9,851 nucleotides of DNA, from contig CAIYYW010000110.1 in the NCBI GenBank assembly GCA_903930515.1, forward strand, positions 1 through 9,851, in the 5' to 3' direction. This document shows, piece by piece, positions 2 to 9,707 of the stretch. Source of the stretch: an uncultured delta proteobacterium. GTDB taxonomy: Bacteria; RBG-13-61-14; DRUE01. The first letter of the stretch is position 1. Every line of letters starts with the position of its first letter. The position numbers were made by a program, and so were the translations under genes. The notes under the pieces were generated by a model, which had not been told where the DNA came from, made no database searches, and saw only the letters and a program-made list of their open reading frames with translations.

Positions 2-1243
2 TTATTTCCCGCAACATTTTTTATACTTCAAACCCGAGCCGCACGGGCAAGGATCGTTGCGGCCGGCGGTCCTGGAAATCCCGGTCGCGGATTTTGACGC
101 CCGGTTTCGTTCCTGATCCTTTTTCCATTTCCGGGCCAGGGCCTTGAAAGTTTCATCGCTGTGTTCAAAAAATATTTTATATGCCGGGCAGAGCAGATTA
201 TTTTTCCCTCCCATCCGCTCCTTGGGACATCCGCCGGAGCAATATTTCAGCCATTGGCATCTTCGGCAATCCTCGGATAAACCGGCTTTCCTTTTTCCAA
301 ACCCGGCCTGGTCCGGCGAATTCAGCAGATCAATCAGCCGGTCCTGCTCAAGATTTCCCAGCAGACAATCCGGCTCCACGAAAAAATCGCAGGAATACAC
401 CCCGCCGTTATGCTCCACCACCAGGTAGGTTCCGCATTCCTTCTGCAAGGTGCATTCCGGCGGCTCCAGGCCGACATATTGGAAGAAGAGCGAGTCAAAA
501 AATCTGATGGAGGTGGTTGGAACCCCGTTCTTGAAATCCGCGATCCAGAGGTCGAAAATTTTACCGAGGAATTCCCCCAGATTTTCCGCAAGGACGGAAA
601 AAGACGCAGGCTTGCCCGGGTCTTGCAGGTCCGGCTCCAGACAGGGGATGAACTGCATATATTTTAGGCCGAGTTGTTTATGGAATTGATATATCTCTTC
701 TGCGAATCGGCTGGAATAATCGCTGACCACCGACAGGGCATTGACTTCCACCCCGGCGTCCAGCATCAGCTTGGCGCTGTCCGTCACCTTGGACCAGGAG
801 CCCGAGCCGGCGGGCATACGCCGATACTGGTTATGAATATGCTCGGGGCCGTCCAGGGAAAGCCCGATCAGGAATTTATGGTTTGCGAAAAAATTCGCCC
901 AATCTTGATTGATCAGGATGCCGTTGGTTTGAAAACCGTTCCCGATCACTTGCCCTTGGTGGAATCGTTTCTGGAACTCAACTGCTTTTTCGAAAAAGTT
1001 CAGGCCCATCAGGGTCGGCTCCCCGCCCTGCCATCCGAAGGTGATCTGATCTTTGGACTGCTCCATTGCCTGTCGGATCAAATTCTCCAGGACCGGCTCG
1101 CCCATCCGATGAACTTTCTGCGACGAGAACAGGGCTTGTTTGGGAAGATAGAAGCAATAAGCGCAGGCCAGATTGCAATCCGGCCCGGCCGGCTTGACCA
1201 GGAGGGTGGTCAGAGGTTTTTGGTTCACCGGCCGAGAATTCAC
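2..1243 (-). CDS. Anaerobic sulfatase-maturing enzyme (radical SAM/SPASM) with C-terminal SEC-C zinc motif
   Basis: This enzyme oxidises the active-site cysteine (or serine) of a sulfatase to C-alpha-formylglycine in the cytoplasm, using S-adenosylmethionine and iron-sulfur clusters. With the GTG start at 1243 the protein has 413 residues. The radical-SAM motif CNLACAYC gives Cys23, Cys27 and Cys30, followed by GWQGGEPT near residue 70. The SPASM region holds Cys264, Cys270, Cys285, Cys293, Cys326, Cys329, Cys335, Cys339 and Cys352. It includes CDFF, whose Asp (286) corresponds to the proposed catalytic base of characterised anSMEs. The last ~16 residues form a SEC-C motif (Cys399, 401, 410, 411; pattern CxCx8CC), an added zinc-binding tail. 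The frame stays open to an ATG at 1306, but that would overlap the sulfatase by 67 bases. The GTG at 1243 overlaps the sulfatase TGA as GTGA, has GGAAG just upstream and places the conserved PLTTLLVKPAG start close to the N-terminus. The stop is at the window edge, so the gene is complete. Confidence 0.93.
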   Translation of the reverse strand: MNSRPVNQKPLTTLLVKPAGPDCNLACAYCFYLPKQALFSSQKVHRMGEPVLENLIRQAMEQSKDQITFGWQGGEPTLMGLNFFEKAVEFQKRFHQGQVIGNGFQTNGILINQDWANFFANHKFLIGLSLDGPEHIHNQYRRMPAGSGSWSKVTDSAKLMLDAGVEVNALSVVSDYSSRFAEEIYQFHKQLGLKYMQFIPCLEPDLQDPGKPASFSVLAENLGEFLGKIFDLWIADFKNGVPTTSIRFFDSLFFQYVGLEPPECTLQKECGTYLVVEHNGGVYSCDFFVEPDCLLGNLEQDRLIDLLNSPDQAGFGKRKAGLSEDCRRCQWLKYCSGGCPKERMGGKNNLLCPAYKIFFEHSDETFKALARKWKKDQERNRASKSATGISRTAGRNDPCPCGSGLKYKKCCGK

Positions 1244-2910
1244 TTCTTCCGGTCTTTCTTTAAAAATTCCTTGACAAACGGCCAGTACTTGTTGACCGGG
1301 TTCCAAGGCTCCACCCAGCAGCGTCCGGCCCAGGCCTCATATAAATCCATCAGCTCTTTCACCTGCTCCGGATATTTATCCGCCAGGTTGTTATTCTCCG
1401 GCCGGTCCTCTTCCAGATCATACAACTCCCACGGATGAGGATAGCTGGAAACCAGTTTCCAGTTCTTCCTCCGTAGCGCCCGGTTGCCCTCGTGCTCCCA
1501 CCCGATCAACTCGTGTCCCGCCCTGGTTTTCCCTTCCAAAATGGGCAGCAAACTTTTCCCCTCCACCGGCGTGAGCCGGTTCCCGGCAAATTCCTTCGGA
1601 TATTCCGCGCCGGATATTTCCAGGCAGGTCGGCATTATGTCCATAATATGCCCGACCTCGCCGGTCATTTTCCCCTGCTCCTTGATCACCTTGGGCCAAT
1701 ACGCGATCAAAGGCGTGGAGATGCCGCCCTCGTGCACCCAATGCTTGTGGAGACGGAACGGGGTGTTCCCGGCATTGGACCAGGAGCGGCCGTAGCTGAC
1801 AAAAGATTTATCCGTGCCGATCTCGCTGACCGTCCGGTATTTCTTCATTGAATATTTGGGATTAAAATCAAAACCGAACGCGCCGGTTTCCCAGCAGGCG
1901 CCGTTGTCTGATAAAAACAGGACCAGGGTGTTGTCCTGGATTCCCATTTTTTCCAGCGCCGTCATCAGCTTGCCGATGTTCTGATCCACGCAGTCAATCA
2001 TCCCGCCGTAAACCGCCATCTTCCGCGCCATCTTTTCCTTCAGCCCCGCGCCGAGCTCGTCCCAGGCCGGCGCCTCGGGATCGCGGCTGGAAAGAGACCA
2101 TTTCGGGGAGATGATCCCGAGCGCCTTCTCCCGCTCATAGCGTTCCTCCCGGAGCGCGTCCCATCCTTTGGTATATCGGTTCTCATACTTGGCGATGTCA
2201 TCGGGCTTCGCGTGCAAGGGCCAGTGCGGGGCGTTGTAGGCTAGATAAAGAAAAAAGGGCTTGCCGTCCGGATGATGGTTCCGGATCATTTCAATCGCGG
2301 CGTCGGTAAAGGCGTCAGTGGTGTAATAATTTTCCGGCAGGTCCCCGGGATCAATATATTGATCGTTCCGCATCAGCTCGTTGGGCCGGAAATAATTGCC
2401 GGCGCCCTCGTTCAGCCCGTAATACTCCTCAAACCCGCGGTCAAGTGGGAAGGTTCCGTGCTCCTTGCCCAGATGCCACTTGCCGGTGATAAAGGTATGG
2501 TACCCGGCCGGCTTCAGGGCCTCGGCAATGGTCACGCAATTCCGGTTCATCCGGCCCCGATACCCGGGCTTGCCGTAATCAAATTCCGGGTTGGTCATTT
2601 GGCCGATCCCGGTCTGATGAGGATACAGGCCGGTGAGGATTGACGCCCGGCTCGGACAGCAGCGGGAGCAATTGTAAAACTGGGTGAACTTGAGCCCGTT
2701 TTCCGAAAGCCGGTTCAGATTGGGAGTCGCGATCTCCGAGCCGAAACATCCGATGTCCGCAAAACCCATATCATCCACCAGGATCATCACGATGTTCGGC
2801 TGCCGGCCGGTTAATAACGACTCCGGCCCTGAACCCGATCTGGCTTTCTGGGACAAAGACGCCGAAACCGAAACCGCGGCCGCGGTTTTCAAAAAATTCC
2901 TTCGGTCCAT
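1240..2910 (-). CDS. Tat-exported Cys-type sulfatase (arylsulfatase family)
   Basis: This enzyme hydrolyses sulfate esters with a formylglycine nucleophile and a divalent metal ion. The protein has 556 residues, normal for a type I sulfatase. The N-terminus DRRNFLK followed by an Ala/Ser-rich stretch is a twin-arginine export signal. Metal ligands are Asp46-Asp47 (LVDDMG) and Asp335-Asn336 (SDNG). The signature CxPxR is Cys84-Cys85-Pro86-Ser87-Arg88, so Cys84 is the residue expected to become formylglycine, and ILTG follows. GKWHLG (143-148) supplies the conserved Lys and His, His229 lies in NAPHW, and the KHWVHEGG segment is near 389-396. The substrate cannot be told from sequence; the family covers aryl and carbohydrate sulfates. 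The gene lies 101 bases after the symporter and overlaps the maturase by four bases, so the three look like one operon. A G-rich stretch GGGGAGAGGGGG ends 12 bases before the ATG and is the only candidate ribosome binding site, at slightly long spacing. Confidence 0.95.
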   Translation of the reverse strand: MDRRNFLKTAAAVSVSASLSQKARSGSGPESLLTGRQPNIVMILVDDMGFADIGCFGSEIATPNLNRLSENGLKFTQFYNCSRCCPSRASILTGLYPHQTGIGQMTNPEFDYGKPGYRGRMNRNCVTIAEALKPAGYHTFITGKWHLGKEHGTFPLDRGFEEYYGLNEGAGNYFRPNELMRNDQYIDPGDLPENYYTTDAFTDAAIEMIRNHHPDGKPFFLYLAYNAPHWPLHAKPDDIAKYENRYTKGWDALREERYEREKALGIISPKWSLSSRDPEAPAWDELGAGLKEKMARKMAVYGGMIDCVDQNIGKLMTALEKMGIQDNTLVLFLSDNGACWETGAFGFDFNPKYSMKKYRTVSEIGTDKSFVSYGRSWSNAGNTPFRLHKHWVHEGGISTPLIAYWPKVIKEQGKMTGEVGHIMDIMPTCLEISGAEYPKEFAGNRLTPVEGKSLLPILEGKTRAGHELIGWEHEGNRALRRKNWKLVSSYPHPWELYDLEEDRPENNNLADKYPEQVKELMDLYEAWAGRCWVEPWNPVNKYWPFVKEFLKKDRKK

Positions 2911-5705: not shown

Positions 5706-6236
5706 ATGCCGGTTTGGAAACATATTTTATCCATTTTGGCTTTGCCCTTTATGGCCGCGGCCGCGGCGCCGGGGATGATTCTTTATTCGGAGGGCAAGCT
5801 TAATCTTGACGGGTCATTTGCCTCCGGCCTGGGAATCCTTGCGGTCATCATCGGATCGCTTTTCATTCTCTCCGGTTTGTACTTGATGGCCCGGACCATT
5901 TCCCTGTTCGCCCGGGTCGGAAAAGGCACCCTGGCCCCCTGGATGCCTACTCAACATCTGGTGGTCCAGGGGATATATCGGCATCTGCGAAACCCGATGA
6001 TCAGCGGGGTGTTCGGCATCCTGCTGGGGGAGTCGGTTCTTTTCCGGAGCTGGACCCTCCTGGGTTGGTTCATTTTATTTGTCCTGCTAAATATCATCTA
6101 CCTTCCCGCATTTGAGGAACCGGGATTGGTCAGGCGATTCGGAGAAGAATATTCAAATTACCGCAAAAATGTCCCGCGCTGGCTTCCGCGGCTCAAGCCC
6201 TGGCAGCCGGGACCGGGTCCGGACGCAACGGCTTGA
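5706..6236 (+). CDS. Isoprenylcysteine carboxyl methyltransferase (ICMT)-family membrane protein
   Basis: This is a small integral membrane methyltransferase of the ICMT/PEMT type, expected to use S-adenosylmethionine. The protein has 176 residues with hydrophobic segments at about 7-27, 40-64 and 100-133. The family's conserved C-terminal half is clear: GIYRHLRNPM (89-98), then EEPGLVRRFG (137-146), EYSNYRKNVPRWLPR (148-162). These are the residues that in related enzymes bind the cofactor and close the active site. Bacteria lack prenylated CaaX proteins, so the true substrate (a lipid or another small hydrophobic molecule) is unknown for most bacterial members. The start ATG has GAGG about seven bases upstream. 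The C-terminus is proline and glycine rich and probably not part of the fold. The gene stands between mtgA and the tandem-domain gene without an obvious functional link. Confidence 0.88.
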   Translation: MPVWKHILSILALPFMAAAAAPGMILYSEGKLNLDGSFASGLGILAVIIGSLFILSGLYLMARTISLFARVGKGTLAPWMPTQHLVVQGIYRHLRNPMISGVFGILLGESVLFRSWTLLGWFILFVLLNIIYLPAFEEPGLVRRFGEEYSNYRKNVPRWLPRLKPWQPGPGPDATA

Positions 6237-6308: not shown

Positions 6309-6334
6309 TTTTAAGGGGTATTCAAGGAGCAAGG

Positions 6335-7444
6335 ATGGACCGAAAAGTAAAAGGCGCGTTCCTGGCGGACTTTGCTCGGATGATCAAAGCCAGGAAAGAT
6401 CTTGACTGGAGCCAATATCTTCAGCCTCAGGATTTGCGGTTCCTCCAGGATAAAATCCTGCCCCGGGAATGGTATCCCTTTGACACCTTTGAGCGGATGG
6501 GAAGTGCGATCGTGAAGGAGATCGCGCATGGCAATATGGAGATCGTCCGGATGTGGGGCCGGATTTCGGTGGAGGCCCTGAAGGCGCTTCACCAGGATAT
6601 GGTCGTGGCCGGCAACCCTTATGAATCCCTGATCCGGTTCCAGGTGGTGCGGAAGGATTTCTTCAGCTTCAACCCGGTGAATATCACGGTTTTCTTTCAG
6701 AACTACGCCAAGGTGGAAAGCGCCTACCAGATGAGCGCGTTGGCGGAAGAGTCCGCGGTATATCAGAGTCTGGGGTATCTGGAGCGGTTGCTGGAGCTAT
6801 CCGGGGCGAACAATGTCCAGCATAAGTTCCTGAGAAAAATGTGGGAAGGATCTCCCTCCACGGTGATGGAATTATCCTGGAGCAATGTCACTCCGGAGAT
6901 GAAGGTAAGAGGAATTTTGTTCCAGGATTATGTCCGGATGATCAAAAATTTCAAGGACGCGGATTGGAACCGATACCTGTTGCCGCGCGACCTTCCCTTT
7001 TTAGGAGAAAAAATCGGCCAGACCGAGTGGTATCCGCTTGAAAGCTTTGAGCGGATGGGAATTGGAATCCTGAACGAGATTGCCGACGGCAGCACCGAGG
7101 CGGCGCGCTTCTTCGGCCAGTCGGATGTGGAAACCCAGGTCCAGACCAATCCGGGCCTGGTCTGCCCGGGGGATCCGCTGGAATCCCTGCTCCGGTTCCA
7201 GGTTCTGCGCTCAAGCTTTTTCAATTTCAACGCGATCAATGTGGAAAGCGTTCACGGCAATTTCGCCAAACTCAGGATTGAATACCGGATGTGCCGGCTC
7301 GCGGAAGAGGCCGCAACCTATCAGGCCCTGGGTTTTTTTGAAAAATTACTGAAGCTGGCCGGGGCCAAAAATGTGGATTACCAATTTACCAGCAAGTCCT
7401 GGGAAGGCGATCCCACCACCATCCTGGAATTGAAATGGCTCTAA
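6335..7444 (+). CDS. Unrecognised protein of two tandem homologous domains
   Basis: I do not recognise this 369-residue protein with certainty. It has no signal peptide and no membrane segment, so it is probably cytoplasmic. Residues 5-182 and 191-368 are two copies of one domain joined by eight residues. Aligned by eye without gaps, about 87 of 178 positions are identical. Each copy has, in order, a helix with RMIK, DW..YL.P.DL, EWYP..(S/T)FERMG, a stretch ending in ESL(I/L)RFQV(V/L)R, FF.FN, YQ.LG...(K/R)LL.L.GA and a final WEG.P.T..EL.W. The order of helices, an E-W-Y-P segment and a terminal beta strand recalls the small ligand-binding or regulatory domains typified by DUF2378 and V4R/heme-NO-binding families, but this is memory of pattern only. 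Cysteines are few and a zinc site is not seen. AAGGAG lies five bases before the ATG. The gene appears monocistronic, convergent with the TatT-like gene. Confidence 0.9.
   Translation: MDRKVKGAFLADFARMIKARKDLDWSQYLQPQDLRFLQDKILPREWYPFDTFERMGSAIVKEIAHGNMEIVRMWGRISVEALKALHQDMVVAGNPYESLIRFQVVRKDFFSFNPVNITVFFQNYAKVESAYQMSALAEESAVYQSLGYLERLLELSGANNVQHKFLRKMWEGSPSTVMELSWSNVTPEMKVRGILFQDYVRMIKNFKDADWNRYLLPRDLPFLGEKIGQTEWYPLESFERMGIGILNEIADGSTEAARFFGQSDVETQVQTNPGLVCPGDPLESLLRFQVLRSSFFNFNAINVESVHGNFAKLRIEYRMCRLAEEAATYQALGFFEKLLKLAGAKNVDYQFTSKSWEGDPTTILELKWL
6347..7438 (+). repeat. Internal gene duplication: two 534-base domain copies
   Basis: The coding segments 6347-6880 and 6905-7438 encode the two aligned domains of the protein above, with a repeat period of 558 bases. 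At protein level they are about half identical without insertions; at DNA level they have diverged much further, so the duplication is old and both copies have been kept under selection. Confidence 0.88.
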
Positions 7445-8600: not shown

Positions 8601-9707
8601 ATGAACGGAAAAGAAAGAATAATGACGGCTTTGAACCGGGGCGTCCCGGATCTGGTTCCGGTCTGGGAGTTGGCCTTTAACGAGGCGAGCGTCATCAAAA
8701 TTGCGGGCAAGTTTTTGGAGCCCGATCAGCTCCCGGAGCCCAAGAACATTATGGATATGACCGATCTGGAAGCGCTTAAGCTGGTGAACGCGTTCCGGGC
8801 GATTGGTTTGGAACTGGGCCTGGACGGCGTCACCGCCACTTCAATGGCGCCGATGCAACGGGTGGATCAATCGCATTTCAAGGACGCTTTCGGCGTGATT
8901 CATCATTCCAGCCAATTCGGTGAGCCCTTTCCGGTGGAAGGTCCGATCCAAGGGCCGGAAGACCTCAAAAAATATAAAATGCGCGCTCCAGAGGAAAGCG
9001 ATTTCCTTTTAATTGACTTGATGCGCGCCAATTTTCCGGACCGGGCCGTTGCCTACATCCTTGACGGCCCCTTTCTGATGAGTATGTGTTTATGCGGAGG
9101 TCTGGAGAATCTTCTGCTCAATTACGCGCTGAATCCGGGGCTGGCGACTGACCTGGCCCGGATGATCACCGACTATAACCTGGCCAGCCTGGAGATGATC
9201 GCGAAAAAAGGCGCGGATTTCGTGGTCAGCGATTGCGACTTGGCTTACAATAGCGGGCCGATGATGAGCCCGGCTCATTATGACCGGTTCCTCGGACCGT
9301 ATCACAAGCAAATCGTGGACCGCGGACATCAACTCGGGCTCAAGATGGTCAAGCATACGGACGGCAAGATCCAGACCCTGATCCCGAAATTCATTGCCGA
9401 AGGCTTTGACGCCATCCATCCCTTCCAGCCCCAGTGCATTGACATCGCGGAATCCAAGAAAAAATATGGGGACAAGGTTTGCGTGATGGGCAATATTGAC
9501 TGCGCCTATCTTCTGGTGTTTGGAACGCCAGAACAGGTTCGCGAGAAAGTTAAGCAGACCATTTCCGCGGTCGCTCCCGGGGGCGGTTACATCCTCAGCA
9601 GCTCCAACACCATCCACCCGGGGGTCAAGCCGGATAATTATATCGCCCTGGTCAAGGCGGCGCGGGAATTCGGAAAGTATCCGGAGTTGGCGCAGGGTAA
9701 AAATTGA
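8601..9707 (+). CDS. Uroporphyrinogen decarboxylase-family protein, probably a methyltransferase-type enzyme
   Basis: The protein has 368 residues and the TIM-barrel pattern of the URO-D superfamily. The N-terminus NGKERIMTALNRGVPDLVPV is typical of the family. It is followed by DCDLAYNSGPMMSP (211-224), KMVKHTDGKI (248-257), GFDAIHPFQP (268-277), the CVMGNID strand (294-300) and GGGYILSSSNTIHPGVKPDN (327-346). It lacks the PVW.MRQAGR motif of the haem enzyme HemE, so it is more likely related to the corrinoid-linked methyltransferases (MtaA/MtbA/CmuA-like). In those, zinc is held by a His-x-Cys pair and a later Cys. Here the corresponding pair is His252-x-Asp254 and the SSSN region has no Cys, so metal binding may differ. 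The substrate is unknown, and no corrinoid protein gene is visible before the window ends. The ATG has GGAAGGG about six bases upstream. A tightly spaced second gene may follow. Confidence 0.9.
   Translation: MNGKERIMTALNRGVPDLVPVWELAFNEASVIKIAGKFLEPDQLPEPKNIMDMTDLEALKLVNAFRAIGLELGLDGVTATSMAPMQRVDQSHFKDAFGVIHHSSQFGEPFPVEGPIQGPEDLKKYKMRAPEESDFLLIDLMRANFPDRAVAYILDGPFLMSMCLCGGLENLLLNYALNPGLATDLARMITDYNLASLEMIAKKGADFVVSDCDLAYNSGPMMSPAHYDRFLGPYHKQIVDRGHQLGLKMVKHTDGKIQTLIPKFIAEGFDAIHPFQPQCIDIAESKKKYGDKVCVMGNIDCAYLLVFGTPEQVREKVKQTISAVAPGGGYILSSSNTIHPGVKPDNYIALVKAAREFGKYPELAQGKN

What the first reader, a model, noticed from the sequence alone, without database searches (positions are those of the whole stretch)
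6335..7444. Orphan protein built from an ancient, gap-free tandem duplication
Two 178-residue domains share about half their residues without a single gap but have diverged strongly at DNA level, so both copies are under selection. Conserved positions (DW, EWYP, FERMG, LRFQV, FF.FN, WEG.P) mark a compact fold with a likely pocket. The pattern recalls DUF2378 or V4R/heme-NO-binding domains but the protein lacks any attached signalling domain. A stand-alone tandem sensor or a pseudo-dimer would be novel.
Basis: partly seen in the sequence, partly recalled or inferred. Interest (0 to 1): 0.6.

Follow-up and report, generated by a model that had tools for sequence, protein, structure and literature searches.

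The report
Tandem haem-less H-NOX-fold protein
This gene encodes two fused copies of a DUF2378-like domain that is predicted to fold like the bacterial nitric-oxide sensor H-NOX but has lost its haem-holding residues, so it is most likely a small two-pocket sensor or adaptor protein: a modest new arrangement of a known but little-studied family.

Summary
ORF 6335-7444 (+, 369 aa) holds two halves 186 residues apart that align over 181 residues without a gap, 48.6% identical, with saturated synonymous change (dS about 2.2, dN about 0.43). It is not an orphan. The same genome has six further family members, all single-domain genes, and the order-level relative Deltaproteobacteria RBG_13_61_14 has more than a dozen. 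The tandem gene itself is present in three genomes of this small lineage.

The family profile matches DUF2378 (PF09536/TIGR02265) along its whole length (hhalign 97.6%, E 3e-12). AlphaFold models of both halves match H-NOX crystal structures (VIA Z 14.8-14.9 over about 170 residues), with TRAPP/Bet3 and AraC-type ligand domains next. In two alignments the haem-ligating histidine is replaced by arginine (R106 and R292), and the YxSxR motif is absent.

Most likely it is a soluble, haem-less, ligand-pocket domain pair acting in trans as a fused dimer. Ligand and partner are unknown, and no operon partner is conserved. New variant of a known kind; moderate interest.

The parts
6335..7444 (+). Tandem DUF2378-like / H-NOX-fold protein, 369 aa, soluble (no hydrophobic segment of membrane type)
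6335..6886 (+). Domain 1 (aa 1-184), H-NOX-like fold, AF2 pLDDT 91.4
6893..7441 (+). Domain 2 (aa 187-369), H-NOX-like fold (VIA Z 14.8 to 3tff)
6650..6652 (+). Codon of Arg106, at the position of the H-NOX proximal haem-ligating His in domain 1
7208..7210 (+). Codon of Arg292, same position in domain 2
6324..6329 (+). AAGGAG, likely ribosome-binding site
   Evidence: sequence
5706..6236 (+). Upstream neighbour: PEMT/ICMT-type membrane methyltransferase; also beside the tandem gene in the congeneric genome G001, not in G002. Probably not part of the finding

Best explanation
The gene encodes a soluble stand-alone protein made of two fused, diverged copies of a DUF2378-like domain. Shown: the duplication, constrained protein change, profile homology to DUF2378, and a confident H-NOX-type predicted fold for both halves. 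Shown by alignment: the haem-ligating His is replaced by Arg and the YxSxR motif is missing, so it is a haem-less branch of the H-NOX/V4R/TRAPP fold. Inferred: each half keeps the inter-subdomain cavity of this fold and binds a small, probably hydrophobic or aromatic, molecule or a lipid tail. Inferred: the two halves pack as a pre-fused dimer, as V4R, TRAPP and sGC alpha/beta H-NOX domains pair between chains. Inferred: ligand state is passed in trans to a separately encoded partner (kinase, c-di-GMP or transcription-factor type), because no effector domain is attached; more distant relatives have such domains in cis. The paralogues would then be a set of sensors or adaptors with different ligands or partners.
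For: Duplication and selection. Family: A2 against DUF2378 alignment A8, hhalign 97.6%, E 3.1e-12, score 80.3 over 169 columns, against at most 14.8 for 20 column shuffles and 8.9 reversed. Relative L024 scores 29.5 bits on PF09536 (cut-off 22.2), and L106 links DUF2378, V4R and HNOB in one protein. Fold: domain 1 pLDDT 91.4; Foldseek H-NOX 4u9b E 5.8e-6; VIA Z 14.9, 172 residues, 3.7 A; domain 2 Z 14.8. Weaker sequence link to H-NOX: hhalign E 6.2e-5, score 36.1 against at most 17.7 for shuffles. Haem residues absent in all 23 members. No PF07700 H-NOX hit at E <= 0.01 in G000-G002. Fused relatives: kinase plus domain (L107), domain plus GAF plus HD plus PilZ (L109). Ligand binding in the fold: palmitate in TRAPPC3 and phenols in PoxR (PMC10933270); haem-less alpha H-NOX paired with beta in sGC (PMC8196705). 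Tandem model pTM 0.74 is compatible with a preferred packing.
Against: pTM 0.74 does not prove an interface. The fused relatives match the profile more weakly (E 7e-8 and 5e-5), so their role may not carry over. No operon partner is conserved. A structural, adaptor or enzymatic role is possible on this fold (BcsD and TRAPP are not sensors).
Confidence: 0.5

Rival explanations
1. It is a haem-based gas sensor of the H-NOX type, with haem held in one or both halves.
For: Same predicted fold as H-NOX over nearly the whole domain; N-terminal 'KG' and the mid-domain Gly align with H-NOX.
Against: Two alignments put Arg at the proximal His position; none of 23 family members has His there, and none has the combined H...P...YxSxR motif that 5 of 6 H-NOX-model hits have. 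The protein has four His and two Cys in all, and no His or Cys column reaches 25% in the family.
Confidence: 0.06
2. It is a protein-protein scaffold or adaptor with no small ligand, like TRAPP subunits or BcsD of the same fold.
For: Bet3/TRAPP and BcsD are among the fold matches (Z 10-11); no effector domain and scattered single genes without an operon partner.
Against: Most characterised proteins of this fold hold something in the cavity (haem, phenol, palmitate: PMC10933270, PMC8196705). Its nearest profile family, DUF2378, is uncharacterised, so this cannot be settled.
Confidence: 0.3
3. It is an enzyme or lipid-handling protein working with the adjacent PEMT/ICMT-type methyltransferase.
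For: A methyltransferase gene of this type lies beside the tandem gene on the same strand in the window genome and in G001; TRAPPC3 of the same fold binds palmitate.
Against: Gene order is swapped between the two genomes, the methyltransferase is not next to the tandem gene in G002, and paralogues have unrelated neighbours. No catalytic residue set is conserved; invariant positions are Gly and Trp.
Confidence: 0.06

Closest known systems
DUF2378 / TIGR02265 (PF09536), the multi-copy myxobacterial family
   Same: Full-length profile homology, stand-alone proteins of about 200 aa, many scattered copies per genome (15 in genome G030), unknown function; one member is induced by the quinolone signal HHQ in two myxobacteria (PMC9257966).
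   Different: The window protein does not itself reach the Pfam or NCBIfam models, has two fused domains, and lies outside the myxobacteria to which the family has been called exclusive.
H-NOX / HNOB (PF07700) haem-NO/O2-binding domain
   Same: Predicted fold over about 170 residues, topology and N-terminal start.
   Different: No proximal His, no YxSxR, no PF07700 match.
V4R domain (PF02830), e.g. sensor domains of PoxR and DmpR
   Same: Same fold class; bridging relatives score on both models.
   Different: No PF02830 match in the window protein; no attached AAA+ or other effector; the C-terminal Cys/His residues seen in V4R-like relatives are missing.
TRAPP Bet3/TRAPPC3
   Same: Fold (Z 10-11).
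   Different: Only about 130-140 residues match; no sequence-level link found.
sGC alpha H-NOX
   Same: A haem-less H-NOX-fold domain that works as one half of a pair (PMC8196705).
   Different: In sGC the pair is two chains with long effector regions, and one partner keeps haem.

Membership tests
DUF2378 (PF09536) / TIGR02265 | Window protein reaches the curated score of the family model | tested here: not met
   No hit at E <= 1 in Pfam or E <= 5 in NCBIfam.
DUF2378 (PF09536) / TIGR02265 | Its close family reaches the model or aligns with the family profile | tested here: met
   L024 29.5 bits against cut-off 22.2; hhalign 97.6%, E 3.1e-12 over 169 columns, shuffled controls at most 14.8 against 80.3.
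DUF2378 (PF09536) / TIGR02265 | Single-domain protein of about 200 aa | tested here: not met
   Two domains in 369 aa; paralogues are single.
H-NOX (PF07700) | H-NOX fold | tested here: met
   Foldseek E 5.8e-6 and VIA Z 14.9 over 172 residues; domain 2 Z 14.8. Predicted structure only.
H-NOX (PF07700) | Proximal haem-ligating His | tested here: not met
   Arg106/Arg292 at that column in two alignments; no His in 23 members.
H-NOX (PF07700) | YxSxR motif | tested here: not met
   Absent from both window domains and, at the equivalent position, from the family.
V4R (PF02830) | Match to the V4R model | tested here: not met
   No hit for the window protein or anywhere in the window's genome at E <= 1; distant members only.
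TRAPP/Bet3 | TRAPP fold with acyl-binding channel | tested here: inconclusive
   Fold match Z 10-11 over 130-140 residues; channel not measurable.
H-NOX/V4R-type dimer | Two domains packed as a dimer | tested here: inconclusive

The most novel reading that the evidence does not exclude
A haem-free offshoot of the H-NOX fold that expanded into many stand-alone sensors per cell, with this gene a covalently fused pseudo-heterodimer whose two different pockets integrate two signals and act on a separate partner.
Probability: 0.3. Interest if true: 0.55.

Novelty: new variant of a known kind. Interest (0 to 1): 0.36.

Why it matters
DUF2378 has been described as exclusive to myxobacteria and has no known function. 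Placing it and this sister family on the H-NOX fold without haem gives a concrete, testable reading (ligand-pocket sensor or adaptor). It also extends the family to other uncultured deltaproteobacterial lineages, Syntrophaceae and a Lokiarchaeota bin. The tandem protein is a convenient single-chain form in which to look for ligands and for the dimer interface.

Tried and rejected
Direct Pfam and NCBIfam scans of the window protein gave nothing. Profile searches of solved structures by sequence gave only chance-level matches. A first genome-contig search with the single protein found nothing; alignment A3 was too diverse to give patterns. 'Family', 'class' and 'phylum' searches returned at most three genomes, so this is a small lineage in the held set. 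The operon idea (PEMT partner) was dropped after G002 and the paralogue neighbourhoods did not show it. Whether all three tandems come from one duplication is unsettled: the two G002 halves group together (85/91), D1 of all three as one clade has p-AU 0.040, D2 of all three 0.145. Either the halves were partly homogenised in G002 or the fusion arose twice. No paper on TIGR02265 was found. A direct DUF2378-to-H-NOX profile comparison was weak (E 0.014); the link rests on the structure and on this family as intermediate.

Full report
OBSERVATION. The ORF at 6335-7444 (+) is open from ATG to TAA, 369 aa. Its halves align ungapped at offset 186 over residues 2-182 and 188-368, with 88 of 181 identical (48.6%). 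The score of 479 stands against 30 for the next off-diagonal and -80 for the best of 300 shuffles. Third codon positions are 44% identical and dS is about 2.2 with dN about 0.43. The duplication is real and old, and both copies are constrained. The length is 181, not 178.

NOT AN ORPHAN. Neither Pfam nor NCBIfam names the protein. The same genome nevertheless holds further copies of the domain as single-domain genes: C207, C26, C150, C357, C230 and the more distant C237, beside the two halves in the window. The congeneric genome G001 has the tandem (about 60% identical) and one more copy. The order-level genome G002 has 14 matches, including a tandem gene at C94:44108-45208. The named records show G002 to be Deltaproteobacteria bacterium RBG_13_61_14 and G001 an uncultured deltaproteobacterium (AlinenSedimentsD2 bin-1424); relatives also lie in two Syntrophaceae and one Lokiarchaeota bin. 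Across 386 genomes of many groups, 31 have a match at E <= 1e-4, most of them in reading frames of about 185-250 aa.

FAMILY. Single members reach DUF2378 above Pfam's cut-off (L024, 29.5 bits against 22.2; L106, 30.6 bits, with V4R and HNOB below cut-off). I collected 14 DUF2378 proteins from one 9-Mb genome with 15 copies and compared profiles: 97.6% probability, E 3.1e-12, score 80.3, 169 columns, end to end. Column-shuffled controls scored at most 14.8 and the reversed control 8.9. The window family is therefore a sister group of DUF2378, which PMC9257966 calls exclusive to myxobacteria and of unknown function.

FOLD. AlphaFold2 gives pLDDT 91.4 and pTM 0.86 for domain 1. Foldseek's best PDB matches are all H-NOX (4u9b E 5.8e-6, TM about 0.65), followed by Bet3. 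VIA-align gives Z 14.9 over 172 residues at 3.7 A to 4u99; sGC beta follows, then Bet3, VirS, BcsD and YslB at 10-11. In the tandem model (pLDDT 90.7, pTM 0.74) domain 2 gives Z 14.8. Sequence-level support for an H-NOX link is weaker but above controls (E 6.2e-5, score 36.1 against at most 17.7 for shuffles).

HAEM. H-NOX holds haem by a proximal His on helix F, and a YxSxR motif stabilises the haem propionates (PMC8196705). In the multiple alignment the His column holds Arg106 and Arg292 in the window protein, and the profile alignment also puts the His against Arg106 (read by eye). In 23 family members the column holds R, A, Q, Y, W, I, V or L, never H. The combined motif is found in 5 of 6 H-NOX-model hits used as controls and in none of the family. 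No H-NOX gene was found at E <= 0.01 in the three genomes of this lineage.

CONTEXT. A methyltransferase of PEMT/ICMT type sits beside the tandem gene in G000 and G001 but not in G002; the paralogues stand next to unrelated genes. No partner is conserved. Adjacent but unfused pairs of family genes occur in G002 (C94), G058 and G370, which suggests how a fusion could arise. More distant relatives carry effectors in cis: a Ser/Thr kinase with the domain at its C-terminus (L107) and the domain followed by GAF, HD and PilZ domains (L109).

HISTORY OF THE TANDEM. All six halves form one clade (100/98) with a single-domain gene of G002 as sister. For the G001 first half, which is interrupted by a frameshift, two in-frame fragments were joined for the tree only. 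D1 of the window and G001 group together, as do their D2, but the two halves of G002 group with each other; D1 monophyly across all three is marginally rejected (p-AU 0.040) and D2 is not (0.145). Partial homogenisation in G002 or two fusions remain open.

MECHANISM. I commit to a haem-less ligand-pocket domain pair acting in trans (about 0.5). Shown: duplication, family, predicted fold, missing haem residues. Inferred: cavity, ligand class, dimer-like packing, partner. The best analogues are TRAPPC3/PoxR (palmitate and phenol cavities, PMC10933270) and the haem-less sGC alpha domain (PMC8196705). The prokaryotic V4R domain is regarded as a hydrophobic-ligand domain signalling in cis or trans and as homologous to Bet3 (PMC2253512), which fits this reading.

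VERDICT.

Noticed in passing
window 2-1306 (-) and 1240-2910 (-): A sulfatase with TAT-like signal and a Cys-type active-site motif (CCPSR) lies directly before a radical-SAM/SPASM protein with a SEC-C tail, a likely sulfatase and maturase pair.
   Followed up: no
L008 1495-2654 (-): In G001 the tandem gene is broken by a frameshift inside the first half; assembly error or real damage cannot be told from one bin.
   Followed up: no
L107 2766-4646 (-): A Ser/Thr protein kinase with a domain of this family at its C-terminus.
   Followed up: partly
L109 997-3300 (-): A domain of this superfamily followed by membrane segments, GAF, HD (HD-GYP-like) and PilZ domains: a likely c-di-GMP-linked sensor.
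   Followed up: partly
L063 4758-5357 and 5453-6034 (+); also G058 C157 and G370 C28: Adjacent unfused pairs of genes of the same family recur in unrelated genomes.
   Followed up: partly
L071 8282-9298 and 9289-9858 (-): One paralogue overlaps the start of a gene for a protein that looks like a winged-helix/ferredoxin fusion, the only tight operon-like link seen for a paralogue.
   Followed up: no
window 8601-9707 (+): URO-D/MtaA-CmuA-type methyltransferase, hinting at corrinoid methyl transfer in this genome.
   Followed up: no
L061 6001-6546 (+): A Lokiarchaeota bin encodes a member 26% identical to the query, with the closely similar motif SAWYPFDTY; could be transfer or misbinning.
   Followed up: no
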